From contig NW_023998417.1 in assembly GCF_014805625.2 (NCBI RefSeq), forward strand, positions 8,058,680 through 8,122,679: a stretch of DNA of 64,000 nucleotides, given 5' to 3'. Below, piece after piece: positions 3,066 through 64,000 of the stretch; positions within the stretch are counted from its first letter, which is position 1; each line of letters opens with the position of its first letter. The position numbers and the translations under genes were made by a program. The notes below the pieces were generated by a model. The model was not told the DNA's origin and ran no database searches. It saw only the letters and a program-made list of their open reading frames with translations. The DNA is from Glossina fuscipes (lineage: Eukaryota > Arthropoda > Insecta > Diptera > Glossinidae).

Positions 3066-3238
3066 TTTATTTTTATTTTTACAGCTAGATTTTTGTACTG
3101 AGTATTTTTATAATTTAATTTATATAAATACTAACAATCTCATGTAAATCTATTAAAATCCTTATGATTGATAGTTGCATAATAAATCTACTATTTATCA
3201 CGCTATCTACTTTTTCTACACTTTCGATCACAAATTTA

Positions 3239-3817
3239 CCAGCCTCCACCGTGTTCTTTCTGCACGACATGCTTATAGATCGGATATGGTACAGGATACG
3301 GTTTGGGTACGACAATCTTAATTTGTTTTACCACCTCGACCGGGTAGGGTTTCTCCACCTCTACCGGATATGGTTTCTCAACGGTATACGGTATACGTTT
3401 CTCAGTTATTTCTGGCACAATACGATAGGTCGGTACTTGTATCTCCTGCTGGACTGGCACATGGACGGCATAAGGTTCAGGAATTTGTAAACGTATGACA
3501 TTGGGCACTTTAACAGGCACTGGATGCGGAATGGGTAAAGGAATTTTCTCAATGACTTGCACTGGCACAGGTTTTGAAACTTCCGAATATGTTTCCAACG
3601 GCTGATGGTGACCGGATAAGGATTGATGGCCATCCGATATGGTTAAATCCTCGGTGCTAACATGCGAGGCTGCGCTTATCGTTAAAAAGTATGCCAAACT
3701 TATCAAGGTAGCTGGTAACATCTGTTTTGAAATTGAAAGCAACAGCTTCTCCGTGTCTCTCTCTTTTTAAACAATTTTGTAGATATTGAATATTTTACTT
3801 ACTCTAAACTTATCCAT
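3239..3817 (-). CDS. Secreted proline/valine/tyrosine-rich protein (cuticle or eggshell type)
   Basis: Two exons: 3803-3817 (codes MDKFR) and 3239-3721 with stop at 3236-3238, joined across an 82-bp intron with GTAAGT donor and CAG acceptor in phase 0; about 166 aa. The start is the ATG at 3817; a second ATG opens exon 2 directly after the acceptor (MLPATLISLAYF), so the signal peptide is intact either way. After the hydrophobic leader comes a Ser/His/Gln-rich spacer, then a body built of PVPV, YPVEVEKPYPV and PKPYPVPYP motifs, and a short Gly-Gly-Gly-Trp end. No cysteines and no chitin-binding (R&R) motif are seen. Known family context: Pro/Val/Tyr repeat proteins of insect cuticle and vitelline membrane (vajk-like). 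The tiny first exon before a signal-peptide exon is typical of insect cuticular genes. The structure of the gene is fairly sure; the exact family is inference. Confidence 0.8.
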
Positions 3818-41865: not shown

Positions 41866-44184
41866 TTAATCAGAATTATCAGAAAGTTCGATTATCTTTG
41901 ATTTTCCCTGTCGTTTCGAATCTTTTCTGATAAGACTTTCTAAAGGATTTTGCCGTGAAGAAGACTAAAAATAGAAAAGTACAGAACTAAGAATTTTCCG
42001 ATTTGATAAAAATACTCCAAACTTACTATTGATTTCGTAGAAATTTCCAGTTGGGGCATTACTCGACTAGATCGAGTTGTAGCTCCGCTGCTTCTTAAAT
42101 TATCGGCTGAACCACGACCGCGACCAGTTGTGCCGCCTCTTTTGTTGACAGCAGTGCGAGTTTCTTTTTTCTTACCTCTAGTTGCTCTAACATTTTTCAA
42201 AGGCAGACAATCATCATCGCTATTCTCATTGCCTGAATTACTAGTCCGACTATTTTCAAGATTTGTTGTGTTTTGTTTGAGTGATTGACGTACTTTATGA
42301 GTTGATGAACCCAACAGATTAAATATATCATCAGAAGTAATTCCCTGCTTAAATTTCTGCAATTCTACGTTGACGTTTTCTTCCGCAACCATATTGTCCA
42401 TTAAATAATCTAAAGCTTTTTTTTGGTAAGAGCTGCAGATGTTATTATATGTAGAAATTATTATTCTATGGAAGTTAAAATCGTTTTGTACTTAATTAAA
42501 TTCTCGGCAGCATTATTGTCGTTGCGTTCCACCATCTGATGGCATACTTCCGCAAGGGCTTTGCTTGATAAAACTTTTAAAGATTTACTTTCATCTAAAT
42601 TATTGTAATAAAGTTCAACCAAGTCTTCCACCTTGGTTATATTTTCACATTCCTACAAAATGTCGTGTAATATGAAAGTCATATATACACAGGTATTGTT
42701 TGTTATATCTCACCTTTCTCTGGAATTGAACTTTCGTCTTTTCTGGACTTGATTCAGACTTTTCTGCTTTCGCTTTTTTTGTCATTTTTTTGAAGTGAAT
42801 CATATCTGCTGGGTTAGCTACCTAATTGAGGATTGAAAGGATTACGTGAACAAAAAGCTTTCGAAATGGGCAACGTTAAGAGTTACTCTATCATTGAATA
42901 TTTGTCCAAGACGTATGTGATTAAACATTTGCTCCTCGTCCAAATAAACTATGCGCAAACGAATATTGGGCAGTTTCGGTTGCTTAACATGATCGGTAAC
43001 CATTTCTTTAGCTTTTTCAATCATAGCTGTCGCACGTTTCTCCGCCATATCTCTTACTTTGTTAGAGACGTCTCCTTCATCTAAATGCAATTCATCAGCT
43101 AGGTTTGCAACATTTACAGACTCGAATACAAATGGACGAACAGTTTTTAACGGTATAGGTTTCATTTGAAATTTATCTTTGTATATCTCCAATATGCCAA
43201 CATGTTTTTGTAAAGCTTCGCCTTCTGAGAGAGATGTACAAACACTCGATCCCGGCTGGCTAACATAAAAATTTCGCTGAGCATTGAATTGTGGTTCTAT
43301 GTGGCAATCGTGTTCGTGACCCCATATAATCAGATTAAGAAATTCTGGCAAAGCGATCTCTGGCAAATAATTTTTAGGCCCTCTGTCAGCCCGATTTTGA
43401 TGTACAACCATCAAATGAAACCATTCACCATCGTGATCACTAGGTGCCTGGATATGTACTTTACGACTTTCAAACAATCTAGATAAGCGGGCATCATGTA
43501 TATGACTCAAGCCGTATAAAGCTAATCGCGTCGCTCCTTTTTTCATTAAAATTGGTGATATTTCGACTTTGGTCAAATCAGTGCATCGACCAAAATAATT
43601 TATTAACCCAGTAGTAGATAATAAATCCAATGAACTCAATCCACCGAAAGAGCTCGGATCATCGTGATTGCCATGTATAGAATATACGGGAATTGCTACA
43701 TTTAGATTTGGGTCTTCGTAGTTTACAGACTCATTAATAGCACCATGAAAATGTTGATTACCATCAATCAATTCCACGGCAATAGGCTTATCACCGAAAG
43801 TATACATTCGCAAAAGATTCATACATCTTCAAATATGCAAAAAAGAAAGAAAAACTTGCATTTTTCTAAATGCCTATTAATATTGCTTTCAAACCTACTT
43901 GAACAAAGCATTTTGACTGGGAACGGCATCATGAAACAAATCGCCGCCTAACAATATAAAATCAACATCCTCTTTCACTGCCAGCTCTAACATTTCTTCA
44001 AAAGCTATGAAGCTGTCTTCGCCTGCAAATAGCTTTACGTTTAAACTAGTTTTTAAAGAGACATCAGCTCGTTTAAATATTTACCTCTAATTGGATCTTT
44101 CTCACCATAGCCCAAATGATTATCCGTCGAAATCATTATTCGCATGATGTCATTTAAGGCAATTTCACCATCATCCAAGGACAT
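41866..44184 (-). CDS. mre11: Mre11, double-strand-break repair nuclease
   Basis: Catalytic subunit of the Mre11-Rad50-Nbs complex: Mn-dependent 3'-5' exonuclease and endonuclease acting in nuclear double-strand-break repair, telomere protection and ATM signalling. Seven exons on the minus strand: 44085-44184, 43899-44022, 42887-43826, 42714-42821, 42492-42652, 42027-42432, 41866-41964 (stop included); all introns GT-AG and all phases agree, giving 645 aa (Drosophila about 620). All phosphodiesterase motifs are present: D21 and H23 (STDNHLGY), D61 and H64 (GGDLFHD), N128 and H129 (GNHD), H217 (VVHQNR), H245 and H247 (WGHEHD). The capping domain follows, with the conserved VANPADMIHF at the exon 3-4 junction. 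The C-terminal part has a GRGRG glycine-arginine motif and ends in an acidic/serine tail (ELSDNSD). It lies between the WAP-like gene and that gene's decayed exon copy. Nothing suggests it is broken. Confidence 0.97.
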
Positions 44185-57473: not shown

Positions 57474-58123
57474 TTAATCCAACTGTAACAAAATGAAAAC
57501 TGCTGTTGATATATACTGAAGTAGAGATTTGAAAACATATATATTTACCTTCTTAAAGCCAATATCGCTGGCATATTCCCGGAAACATTGCCGACAAATA
57601 TTTAAACCATATTTACGAATTAAACCGTGACGATTAGAGCAGGCACGACTGTAAGAACATTAGTGAAAGAAAATACAACTTGAATGAGTTCACAAAAAAA
57701 TTTATGAGTCTATATGCGTATTGTGCGTGTGCACGTATGTAAATGTTTCTTAATAAATTGCAAAAAAACAAAACTATCGATAATACTTGATTTGTTTTTC
57801 ATATCAAAGCAAAAATAAGATCTTTTTTCTTTCGCCTCCCTGAATTAAGGAACTTGCAATTTTGCATAATTTCGGCAAGTTCCGTACTCAACTGGGGGCT
57901 TCTTTTTTATGCATACAAAATGTATACACTTGAGAATTCCAATGCAATGTTAACATAACCTCACTTTCATCAAGTTTTACTTTTAACAAATCTTTGAACT
58001 AATTTTTTATGTAATTCAGGACTTTTGTTCATCCCAAATATTGTGTAGATATTTTATTTACCAGCATCTGGAGCCTTGACCATATTTACGAGGATGAGAA
58101 TACCACAAATTAGCAAAGCCCAT
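57474..58123 (-). CDS. RpS29: 40S ribosomal protein S29 (uS14)
   Basis: Component of the small ribosomal subunit head. Three exons on the minus strand: 58062-58123, 57549-57648 and 57474-57482, all GT-AG, phases 2 and 0. The product is 56 aa, exactly the family length: [20 protein letters not shown], then the zinc-binding part with C-C-R-A-C-S-N-R and [20 protein letters not shown]. The four zinc cysteines (pairs CRAC and CRQC) are intact. The last exon encodes only Leu-Asp and the stop, found from the TTACAG acceptor directly before TTGGATTAA. The 5' UTR is short, and a pyrimidine-rich TTTTTTCCTTTTGCG on the minus strand (58146-58160) fits the TCT/TOP start of ribosomal protein genes. It is head-to-head with SKA1. 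Confidence 0.97.
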
Positions 58124-58738: not shown

Positions 58739-59796
58739 ATGGAAAAAATTTATGAAGACTTAAGCTCAATTGAAGCCAAAATTAATAAATTGAATGACTT
58801 TATTTCATTAAGTTTGAAAAGAGACAAAATTTCCAATGAACTAAAAAGGCTCTTGCAACAAGCTAATAAGGTGAGTAGTCTCATGAGCCATGGACACAAA
58901 GTAATGCAAAAGGAGTTGAATGACGTACAAGCGGATTGTGATGATGCCATGAAGCGAATGAGGGATCATCAAACTGAAATGATGGATTTTATTATAGAAG
59001 AAAAGAAGCGTCAGCTGCAAAAAGATCCCGTTACAGATATTCGAAAACTGAAATCTCATCGACTGAATGTTAGGAAAGGAAAACCTCTTCGGGATAGCGA
59101 TGTAGATGGAGCCACAAACTCTGACATAAAATTGTTGGGTTCGAGTTTATTACGATTACAATTGAATCAAGGAACTCCTAAGATAAGAATCAGTGATTAT
59201 AAGGAATCGCCGTTAATAAAACGAAGACTTAATAATGCGGCGATCAAATTTTCAGATTTTGATGTCAACATTACAAAACAACAATTTCAATCTATACCAA
59301 AGTATGACAAATCAATAAAAAAAAAAAAAAACAAAAGTATAATTTCAGATAATTAATTTTTTTTTTCACCATTTAGATACATGCTTGGACGAGAAACTTT
59401 CACAGATATTAACAATTTCTTGGAGGATGTCATTATAAAATGTTTCAATGAAAAGTATGAACTTTTGCCAAGACCGCGTAATGTGGTCCTCCGTAACATA
59501 AATGATTTAGAATTATGGAAAACATACAATGATCAGGAAACTTTAGTATCAGGAGGTAAGCAAAGCATGCAGTCAAAATGTTCCTATTTAAATTCCTAAC
59601 AAATTTTTTCTTTAAAGGTTACAAATTCATAACGTCCGTTGATATTGCTCGTAAGCTAGAGAAAAGTATTCTCGATCGAAAAACTCTAAATCGTATCACC
59701 ATTCTACGTCATGTTGGAATTTTGCAAGAGTATAGAGTTAAGCAATTAATTTGTTATATATGGGTTGCACATTCTCGATTTAATACTGACGTTTAA
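58739..59796 (+). CDS. Ska1: SKA1-like spindle and kinetochore-associated protein
   Basis: Subunit of the Ska complex, which couples kinetochores to depolymerising microtubules in mitosis. Three exons: 58739-59301, 59377-59555, 59618-59796 (stop 59794-59796), GT-AG introns of 75 and 62 bp, phases 2 and 1, 306 aa. Residues 1-100 are rich in heptad-like Leu/Ile, Lys and Glu (coiled coil; NKLNDFISLSLKRDKISNEL, then KVSSLMSHGHKVMQKELND), as in the SKA1 N-terminus that assembles with SKA2/3. After a basic linker comes the microtubule-binding winged-helix domain: ITKQQFQSIPKYMLGRETFT (matching vertebrate F.SVPKYMKGRLT), DINNFLEDVIIKCFNEKYEL, then KFITSVDIARKLEKSILD and ITILRHVGILQEYRVKQLI (matching ILRHCQRLRE.R). 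The IPKYM core is created exactly by the first splice, which supports the exon model. It is 615 bp from RpS29 (divergent) and converges on the zinc-finger gene. Confidence 0.9.
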
Positions 59797-60112: not shown

Positions 60113-63100
60113 TTACTGCATTTGATGCATAGCTTTAATAGCTAATTCTTCATCGATGTCGGGCATTATTGGTTCAAACATGCTTTTAGGGAAAGCGACA
60201 TTTCCCACCATAACTACATCTTTGCGATCACTTGCCATTGTTGGATCGTATAAAATTGGGAGACTTGGGAGAGTATTCTCATTATTATTAATGGGCAATG
60301 AATTCCACGACGCCAATGCGTTTGGTGTTTCTTGCTTTTGCTGAGCTTGAACTTGAGCTGCTGCAACGGCGGCCGCTGCCTCCAATTGCAATTTCTGCAT
60401 CTGCATCATTAGACGGGCATTGGCGTCCAAATGAGAATGACGTGCTCTTATGTGCTTGTCTCGATCTCCTCTTTGTCTGAAATTCTTTGTGCAAAATAAA
60501 CAACCAAAGGGCTTTTCTCCAGTGTGAATACGTTGATGATTTTTTAAGGCATCGGCCCGATAAAAACGTTTGCCACATTCTTCGCATTCGTAGCGGCGTT
60601 CACCGCGATGTATAAGCCGGTGTTGATAGAACACAGAACCGGTCAGAAAGCGTTTACCACACACTAAACAATGATATGGTCGTTCGCCGGTATGACATTT
60701 GCGTATGTGATCGTTTAAATCGGGTCGTATAGTAAACTTTCGACAACAGCCGGGCTCTTTGCAAGCAAATGGCTTAACACCTTAAAAAACAATGACACGT
60801 AAGAAAGAGCAATATCCGTGCTCAAGCGAAACTTGGATACCCACCACCTTTACATTTTAATAACTGTGGGCATATCAATGAACGAATGGGAAACTTTCGC
60901 ACGGCCAAAGTTCAGATTGATATTTATTTATTACTTATGTTTGCGAGTGAGTTATGCTCATTTTCAAATCTCATTTCATTTTAATTTCATAACTGGCCAG
61001 AGGCTAAGTAGTCTTAAAACTTTTAGATTGATTAAGAGAAGAGGTATATGGGTACAAAATATATCTCCTGCGACTATTTGGACATTGCGAACGGAATGAC
61101 AACCTTAATTCGCCGATTTCAACATGGTCCAGAAAGATAAATTCAATTTTCTTCTTACACGATTACATTAAGCTTAGCATGGATGAAAAGGTACATGAAT
61201 TTAAATTTAAAGGACAATGATTTTTCGTTTATATTATAGACACACATATATATATATATGTATTTAGGGTAGCATTATGCAATGCTCTTATCAAAAAGTT
61301 TTTGAGCGCATATATACAAAGTTTACCTTTAGCGCCTTGCGCAATTATGGCTTCAGCACGGTTTTGCTAGAGTTTATCATAATTGGTTTCAAAGTCTCCA
61401 ATATGTTGCAAGCGAAATGATCAGGTTTGTACATCCCCATTCTTTGGTAGTGGGCATAAAAGTCTACACTGCTAAACTGAATATTTCTCACCTTGATGAA
61501 AACGCAAATGCTGCCACAAATGGCTAGATTGCGTATATGATTTACCACAAATGTCACATAGATATTGTCGAGTCTTGCTAACATTACCAGTACCATCTTT
61601 TTCTCGCTTATATTTCTTATAATGTTTCGCCTCATAATGATTCACGCACTCTTGGGCATTTTGGAAAAACGTGTCGCAGCATTCGCAAGGTAATTGCAAA
61701 ACGCCCAAACGCTTATTAAGGCGAGGAAAAAAATGATGCGAAGTATAGCTGAAATAAGAATAGATTTTTTTTTTTTTACACTAAACCTAAAATTTTGAAT
61801 TTCACGAAATAATATCATACCGATGCCCATGCAATTGATCTAATGATTGAAACTTATTCTCACAAACGTTGCAAGCAAAGTAGCGTTGAGTTGTGGCGTG
61901 ATAGATTTTAACACTTTCACGCATGAACACACACTCAGCCTGCCAATGGGTACATATTTCCTTTGAAGTTCTTGCATGTATATCACAAGCAAAGCATTCG
62001 AAAGGCCTTTCGGGTAGATGACAAGCCGAATGAAAAAATAAAAACGATACTTCCGAAAATAATAAATCGCAAAACTCGCACTGAAGAACACAACTTAAAA
62101 TTGTCATTTTTAAATAGACAACCATTTTTTCGTGTTGATAGGTTTTCATGGACGGAGAAGGCCGTTTGGTCTGGCAAAGGTATAGACAATATTTCTTTAG
62201 CGAAAATGTTTTAACCACATTAACATTTTAAGCCACATACCTCCATCTTTAGATATTTCGAAGCGTCGTCTACATAAGTTTCATAGGGAATGTCAGCAAT
62301 GTTATCAGGTTCTTTTTTGTCTGAAAGTGGAAAGTGACTGCAAAGGTGTTTAAACGCCGCATTCGGTTCGAAAAATATACGACCGCACAATGTACATTTA
62401 ATAACCAGACGCAAGCCATTGACACTTCGTAATGAATTGCCTTGCGCGACCGGAGTTTTGCCACTACTGTTGCCATTCAATACTGTTGTCGGTATTAAAT
62501 CCAGAGCATGTTTTTCCATATGCCGCAACAAACCGGATGCATGTACAAATTTTCTTTCGCATAATGTGCAATCGTGAGGACCATCTTGTTTTTTATTCGT
62601 TGAACCGTTACTGGATAGTGAAGAATCTGTTGGTGTGTTAAGACCACTAGAACTGGAGCTAGTGTTGACAATTAAATGAAGACTGCTAACCGTACTACTG
62701 TTTCCAGTAGCGTTGACGTCATATTTGAGTTCATCTTTCAGAAAGCGTCGTATACGTATCTGATTTTCTTTTAACAAGCGTACGCATGCAGGCTCCGCCG
62801 GTAGTAGAAATTGATATCTAACTGGCTTGTCAAAGTTGCTAGACGCCGCTATCGATGGTACTACTAAGTTGTGCTGTTCATCATAATCGCAAACGTGCGA
62901 TTGAAAAGATATTATATCAAACAAACATTCACAATTTGCACATTTCACTATACGATATGCAGTGGATGGTAATTCCGATTGCATAAACATTTTCGGATCT
63001 AAATTTAAACGGATATCCCTCAATTCTATTTGTTTAAGTTTCCTGTGTGTAGAAATCCACTTACCCAAAAAAGTGTTTTTTGGTTGTGTTTCGAGAAATT

Positions 63101-63581
63101 TTAATAATTTCAATTCTTCTTCAGTTGGATCGAAAGTAGGTGAAATATTTTGCTTCGCTGCCTCACTGACCACTGCAGCAGCTTCTGCAACAACTGGCGC
63201 GGATACTAGAGGCATGGTGGTGGTAAATTCGACCATAGGAGGAGAAACGTGACCTACCACTGGCATTCTGCTACCTGTAGTACTTAAGTCCAACACTTCG
63301 AAATTCAAGTCGTACGTTTCGTTCAGACTACATTTATTCTTTTTAAAAATCATATCAAGCGACTCTAGGCTTTTCTTGCTTGGTTCTGTGCCGTCCTCTT
63401 TTAATGGTATCCCGTTAGCATTTTGCGCATCATGAGGATAATTTTGAAAAGAATCATTTATCATCGGAGTTGATGCATTGTTTCTATCTTTAAAATCCGT
63501 ATTGAAATCTTTCAACCGTGCAAACAATTGCTCCGAAAGCCACGCATCTGAATTTGCGAAGTCTTCCTCATTTATATTCAT
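60113..63581 (-). CDS. C2H2 zinc-finger protein, about eleven fingers
   Basis: Probable nuclear DNA-binding protein. Four exons on the minus strand: 62241-63581, 61821-62080, 61492-61748, 60113-60780 (stop 60113-60115), all GT-AG, phases 0, 2 and 1; 841 aa. I start at ATG 63581 (MNINEEDFANSDAWL); the frame is open a little further but with no earlier ATG, and 5' exons beyond the window cannot be excluded. The first ~330 residues are acidic and Ser/Ala/Thr-rich with one atypical Cys-Cys-His-Cys motif (CANCECLF...HVC). Fingers then follow singly or in pairs: CTLCERKF, CTLCGRIF, CEFCDLLF, CNVCENKF, CECCDTFF, CDICGKSY, CKEPGCCRKF, CLVCGKRF, CEECGKRF, CLFCTKNF. The last five form a continuous array with HTGEKPF-type linkers, one linker (HQGVKPF) being made by splicing; this array is the likely DNA-contacting part. 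A glutamine/alanine stretch and acidic tail end the protein. Not recognised as a named Drosophila gene. Confidence 0.88.
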
Positions 63582-64000
63582 TGCGAATATCAATAAAACC
63601 CAATATGAAATGACTTATGACATCCCATATTTGGTCTTAACGGACCGTTGACAATAAAATCAATGCATACTTTTTCAAAAATGCTGCCGTAGCCGTTAAA
63701 CAGAATTGCAGTTAAGTGGAGTGCCCTATACACATTTGCTATTTCGTTCAGATTCCATTACAGACCAGCATACGAACGTAGCGTAGTGAATGAATTTTTT
63801 TGAAAGTAATTTAATAAAGTCGGAATTAAAGCATAAGATTATATTAATAATTGAAATAAAGGAAGTAATTTAATTTATACATTCCTTTATTTAACGAAAA
63901 AAAGGAATGGAATAGGAAAAGGAATTGATAACATTCAATCCTATTCGCACTGAAATTAACTTTTAAACGTAAACTTTCTAAGTGATTACGTGATTTCGAT
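63582..64000. other. Upstream region of the zinc-finger gene
   Basis: No coding exon recognised. It probably contains the 5' UTR and promoter of the minus-strand zinc-finger gene; no TATA box is obvious at the expected distance. The window ends here. Confidence 0.5.

What the first reader, a model, noticed from the sequence alone, without database searches (positions are those of the whole stretch)
58739..59796. A clear SKA1 homologue in a fly genome
The three-exon plus-strand gene rebuilds a SKA1-like microtubule-binding domain, with the IPKYMLGR core produced by the splice at 59301/59377 and a C-terminal ILRHVGILQEYR motif. From memory, the Ska complex has been described as absent or very hard to detect in Drosophila. 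If so, a readable copy in a related fly would date the loss or divergence, and would allow the Drosophila counterpart to be sought by synteny beside RpS29.
Basis: partly seen in the sequence, partly recalled or inferred. Interest (0 to 1): 0.75.

Follow-up and report, generated by a model that had tools for sequence, protein, structure and literature searches.

The report
Ordinary tsetse-fly SKA1 kinetochore gene
This looks like an intact, ordinary gene for SKA1, a protein that helps chromosomes hold on to the cell-division spindle; it sits in a tsetse-fly genome, close relatives are already named in public databases, and its main value is as a reference point for asking whether fruit flies lost this machinery.

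The parts
58739..59301 (+). SKA1 exon 1 (codons 1-187 and two bases of 188): N-terminal helices, the disordered loop and the start of the microtubule-binding domain
   Evidence: open frame; helices 2-26 and 28-95 in the model of the 93% identical relative P0002; 136.8 bits alone with the fly profile
59302..59376 (+). intron 1, GT...AG, 75 bp
   Evidence: G+C 0.16
59377..59555 (+). SKA1 exon 2: first half of the winged-helix microtubule-binding domain (IPKYMLGR completed at the junction)
59556..59617 (+). intron 2, GT...AG, 62 bp
   Evidence: G+C 0.27
59618..59796 (+). SKA1 exon 3: second half of the winged-helix domain with ILRHVGILQEYR, and the stop codon
60072..60077 (+). possible polyadenylation signal AATAAA about 275 bp after the stop
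   Evidence: pattern only
57549..58123 (-). part of RpS29 (ribosomal S14p/S29e), head to head with SKA1; start codons about 616 bp apart; ends approximate, read by eye
   Evidence: frames; Pfam PF00253 E 1.2e-9 on the ORF 57474-57659

Best explanation
It is the tsetse orthologue of SKA1, the microtubule-binding subunit of the Ska (Ska1-Ska2-Ska3) complex of the outer kinetochore. Shown here: an intact three-exon gene model, SKA1 family membership, a predicted C-terminal winged helix (in a 93% identical relative) that superposes on human Ska1, predicted long N-terminal helices, and a SKA2 gene model in the same genome. Inferred: the N-terminal helices bundle with Ska2 and Ska3 and dimerise, and the C-terminal domain grips tubulin mainly through the conserved arginine cluster (R193, R278, R287 = human R155, R236, R245) helped by R268/K269, so that the complex holds on to and tracks depolymerising microtubule ends together with Ndc80. 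The human cluster K183/184/203/206 and two of the four Aurora B sites (S185, S242) are mostly not kept, so Aurora B control of microtubule binding through this domain is probably weaker than in humans or uses other sites.
Against: No transcript or protein evidence. SKA3 was not searched for. In human cluster K183/184/203/206 only 1 of 4 positions is basic (R222), in K217/223/226/227 2 of 4 (R268, K269). On Aurora B: in the human work, phosphomimics at T157 and S242 showed no effect on binding, and it was S185 with T205 (or, in earlier work cited there, S185 with S242) that mattered (PMC3923297, passages); T205 falls on a serine here, so some control could remain. The predicted fold has pTM 0.54 and a poor loop; the fold search barely tested the N-terminal helices. 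No SxIP or SxLP string for EB1 in the window protein.
Confidence: 0.96

Rival explanations
1. A SKA1 pseudogene or unexpressed relic.
For: No expression data are available here, and intron 1 is rich in A and T runs.
Against: The frame is open over 306 codons with canonical splice sites, full-length co-linear relatives exist in two other Glossina entries at 93% and 84% identity, and the invariant family residues are kept.
Confidence: 0.02
2. A SKA1 descendant that has moved to another microtubule role, no longer acting in a Ska trimer.
For: Part of the human microtubule-contact residues and Aurora B sites are missing, and Glossina sits on a long stem branch in the trees (0.73 and 0.89 changes per column).
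Against: The N-terminal helices are predicted intact and the genome keeps a SKA2 model, whose best-known role is in the complex (recall).
Confidence: 0.04
3. Another winged-helix or coiled-coil family that resembles SKA1 by chance.
For: Weak matches to Tri-helical, MYO6 lever and Muted models (E 0.02-0.17), each below its cut-off.
Confidence: 0.005

Closest known systems
SKA complex subunit 1 of Glossina austeni (UniRef A0A1A9UJZ8, P0002) and Glossina brevipalpis (A0A1A9WU84, P0003)
   Same: Full-length, co-linear, 93% and 84% identical. P0002 stands for a 90% cluster of 7 member sequences, so the window's own protein may be among them.
   Different: Substitutions and a length difference of two residues (308 aa) or none (306 aa).
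SKA1 of other flies (Musca, Stomoxys, Lucilia, Bactrocera, Ceratitis, Episyrphus, Megaselia, Culex)
   Same: Same protein family over most of the length; P-K-Y-x-x-G-R and K-Y invariant in alignments of 15, 29 and 9 rows.
   Different: The named rows outside Glossina share 36-47% with the window protein; the window and G. austeni have one residue more before the FITS strand, which G. brevipalpis lacks.
Human Ska1 microtubule-binding domain (PDB 4c9y, 4ca0)
   Different: 30% identity in the fold alignment; cluster K183/184/203/206 mostly, and Aurora sites S185 and S242, not kept.
Ska1 homologue C-terminal domain, PDB 2lyc (Caenorhabditis elegans by recall)
   Different: 24% identity.

Membership tests
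SKA1 (Pfam PF07160) | Profile score over the curated cut-off | tested here: met
   54.9 bits against 29.6, residues 9-289 on profile positions 8-242 of 243
SKA1 (Pfam PF07160) | C-terminal winged-helix microtubule-binding domain | tested here: met
SKA1 (Pfam PF07160) | N-terminal helices that form the trimer bundle | tested here: inconclusive
   helices 2-26 and 28-95 predicted, block pLDDT 87-96 for residues 1-90; packing with Ska2/Ska3 not modelled and the fold search barely tested this part
SKA1 (Pfam PF07160) | Arginine cluster R155/R236/R245 for tubulin contact | tested here: met
   R193, R278, R287 in the window protein; role from PMC3923297 passages
Human-type Ska1 contacts (not family-defining; not filed as a member) | Lysine clusters K183/184/203/206 and K217/223/226/227 | tested here: not met
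   basic at 1 of 4 and 2 of 4 positions in the window protein; the other rows of the 15-row alignment mostly look alike, P0015 least
Ska complex | SKA2 present in the same genome | tested here: met
   G000:C293, two-exon 95-aa model, 46.3 bits against cut-off 30.1
Ska complex | SKA3 present in the same genome | not tested
   no Pfam model known to me and no fly SKA3 sequence on hand
Ska complex | Microtubule binding, kinetochore localisation, Ndc80 dependence | not testable with these tools
   needs bench work

The most novel reading that the evidence does not exclude
The Ska complex was kept through most of Diptera, in calyptrates such as tsetse as well as in Tephritidae, and was lost (or changed beyond recognition) only on the line leading to Drosophilidae, so that the standard fly model for kinetochores is an exception among flies. 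The unlabelled protein P0044, which the trees place next to Calyptratae, could be from a close outgroup (an ephydroid) that still has SKA1 on a fast-evolving branch.
Probability: 0.5. Interest if true: 0.45.

Novelty: already known. Interest (0 to 1): 0.2.

Why it matters
As a gene it is routine. As a marker it shows that a full SKA1 and a SKA2 model exist in a calyptrate fly, so a missing Ska complex in Drosophila, if real, is a change within higher flies and not a trait of insects or Diptera. That would give a natural experiment on how a kinetochore works without Ska, and a reason not to generalise Drosophila kinetochore composition to tsetse, house flies or pest fruit flies.

Tried and rejected
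Whole-genome family search with PF07160 gave 0 matches in 1 genome because genes are scored exon by exon; it misses this very locus, and nothing rang in its 14 control genomes either, so it says nothing. Copy number of SKA1 in the genome was never obtained: the protein search stayed unanswered (11 tries).

SKA2: at E up to 10 the family search listed four places in the genome, of which one passed the cut-off, and only with its neighbours in the frame (30.2 against 30.1); it also rang, below cut-off, in 2 of 14 control genomes. Of seven splice products printed I chose the one with the CAG acceptor and scored only that one in Pfam. The other three places (L002-L004) were not pursued.

Drosophila: three protein searches (788, 5558 and 4175 candidates; 14, 35 and 39 rows listed at E up to 0.001, 0.01 and 10) show no drosophilid name. 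In the 52-row tree (P0001 and nine rows, P0025 and P0029-P0036, left out, some of them short or cut) 27 rows are unlabelled: 12 form a distant group; of the 15 within the fly group, 14 fall with hoverflies (2), the scuttle fly Megaselia (4), tephritids (1) or mosquitoes (7), and P0044 stands beside Calyptratae at 92/85, and at 94/90 in a 23-row tree. Both trees carry long-branch warnings. Holding P0044 with Tephritidae is not rejected (p-AU 0.078), nor is Calyptratae+Tephritidae without it (0.116), so its place is open.

Literature: ten searches. Passages only (at most 12 a paper) were seen of 15 papers. No passage that I saw states that Drosophila lacks Ska. PMC5579357 says that Ska is in most Metazoa and lists Spc24, Spc25 and Nsl1/Dsn1 in D. 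melanogaster and C. elegans as suspicious absences; its figures are not held. The dedicated Ska/Dam1 survey (PMC5439489) is not held. SKA1 with Glossina: 0 papers in this library.

Rfam at gathering scores and ARAGORN (bacterial code) on the window: nothing.

Full report
The finding is a plus-strand gene at 58739-59796. Joining 58739-59301, 59377-59555 and 59618-59796 gives an open frame of 306 codons and a stop, with GT...AG at both introns (75 and 62 bp). Exons have G+C of 0.33-0.34, introns 0.16 and 0.27.

The product belongs to SKA1. Pfam PF07160 matches residues 9-289 at E 1.5e-14 and 54.9 bits (cut-off 29.6) and is the only one of the four families listed that passes its cut-off. Solved human Ska1 microtubule-binding domains match at about 9e-8 with the single protein and 2.5e-19 with a profile of 15 rows that include it. 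The form read into intron 1 lists no SKA1 match in Pfam at E up to 10.

The window is inferred to come from a tsetse fly: the closest entries are UniRef 'SKA complex subunit 1' of Glossina austeni (93%, a cluster of 7 member sequences that may include the window's own species) and Glossina brevipalpis (84%), and the trees place the window protein with them. The genome holds 366 Mb in 709 contigs and the window is C285:8058680-8122679. RpS29 lies head to head on the other strand, start codons about 616 bp apart, read by eye from the frames.

Residues. Human Ska1 R155, R236 and R245 correspond to R193, R278 and R287; K183 to R222; K226 and K227 to R268 and K269; K184, K203, K206, K217 and K223 to non-basic residues. 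[quoted passage not shown] The human roles come from passages of PMC3923297: the R155/236/245, K183/184/203/206 and K217/223/226/227 mutants all reduced microtubule binding; phosphomimics at T157 and S242 had no effect there, while S185 with T205 did. From this I infer that tsetse Ska1 grips tubulin mainly by the arginine cluster and is probably less controlled by Aurora B at this domain; the serine at the T205 position leaves that open. The vertebrate EB1 motif (SHLP, PMC9926122 passages) has no counterpart of the form SxIP or SxLP in the three Glossina rows, while 7 of the 15 rows hold such a string somewhere.

Partners. The same genome has a SKA2 candidate at C293:1024547-1024702 on the minus strand (26.6 bits alone, 30.2 with its neighbours in the frame, cut-off 30.1). 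Adding the upstream exon across a 66-bp intron, one of seven products printed, gives a 95-aa protein with 46.3 bits to PF16740, E 4.1e-12. An acceptor-like stretch just before its first ATG leaves room for a further 5' exon. The same family search also rang, below the cut-off, in 2 of 14 control genomes and at three other places in this one. SKA3 was not searched for.

Distribution. Three protein searches list SKA1 from Glossina, Musca, Stomoxys, Haematobia, Cochliomyia, Lucilia, Bactrocera, Anastrepha, Ceratitis, Eurosta, Rhagoletis, Episyrphus, Eupeodes, Megaselia, Condylostylus, Topomyia, Culex, Aedes and Corethrella. Drosophilidae belong to Ephydroidea within Schizophora; Tephritidae and Glossinidae are in Schizophora too. 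No row is named as a drosophilid. Names are missing for 16 of 39 rows, and no positive control was run, so absence from Drosophila is likely by recall but is not shown here. One unlabelled row, P0044, stands beside Calyptratae on a long branch (92/85; 94/90), where an ephydroid would be expected (by recall, Ephydroidea are close to Calyptratae), but other places are not rejected.

Verdict. The gene is an ordinary member of SKA1 with already catalogued close relatives. The evolutionary idea is reasonable and testable, but it needs drosophilid genomes, which were not on hand.

Noticed in passing
L001:1498-1851 (G000:C293, minus strand): Two-exon SKA2 gene model in the same tsetse genome, 46.3 bits to PF16740; a further 5' exon is possible.
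   Followed up: partly
protein P0044 (unlabelled source, 279 aa): A SKA1 on a long branch beside Calyptratae that falls with no named family in the set; candidate ephydroid.
   Followed up: partly
window 42842-43828 (-): Mre11 exon: Mre11 DNA-binding and metallophosphatase domains, both over cut-off.
   Followed up: no
window 60113-63614 (-): Four ORFs with C2H2 zinc-finger matches in a row downstream of SKA1 on the other strand, two of the four over a Pfam cut-off; possibly one gene.
   Followed up: no
window 3236-3766 (-): ORF rich in PVPV/PYPV-type repeats, like a cuticle or secreted repeat protein; no Pfam match at E up to 0.01.
   Followed up: no
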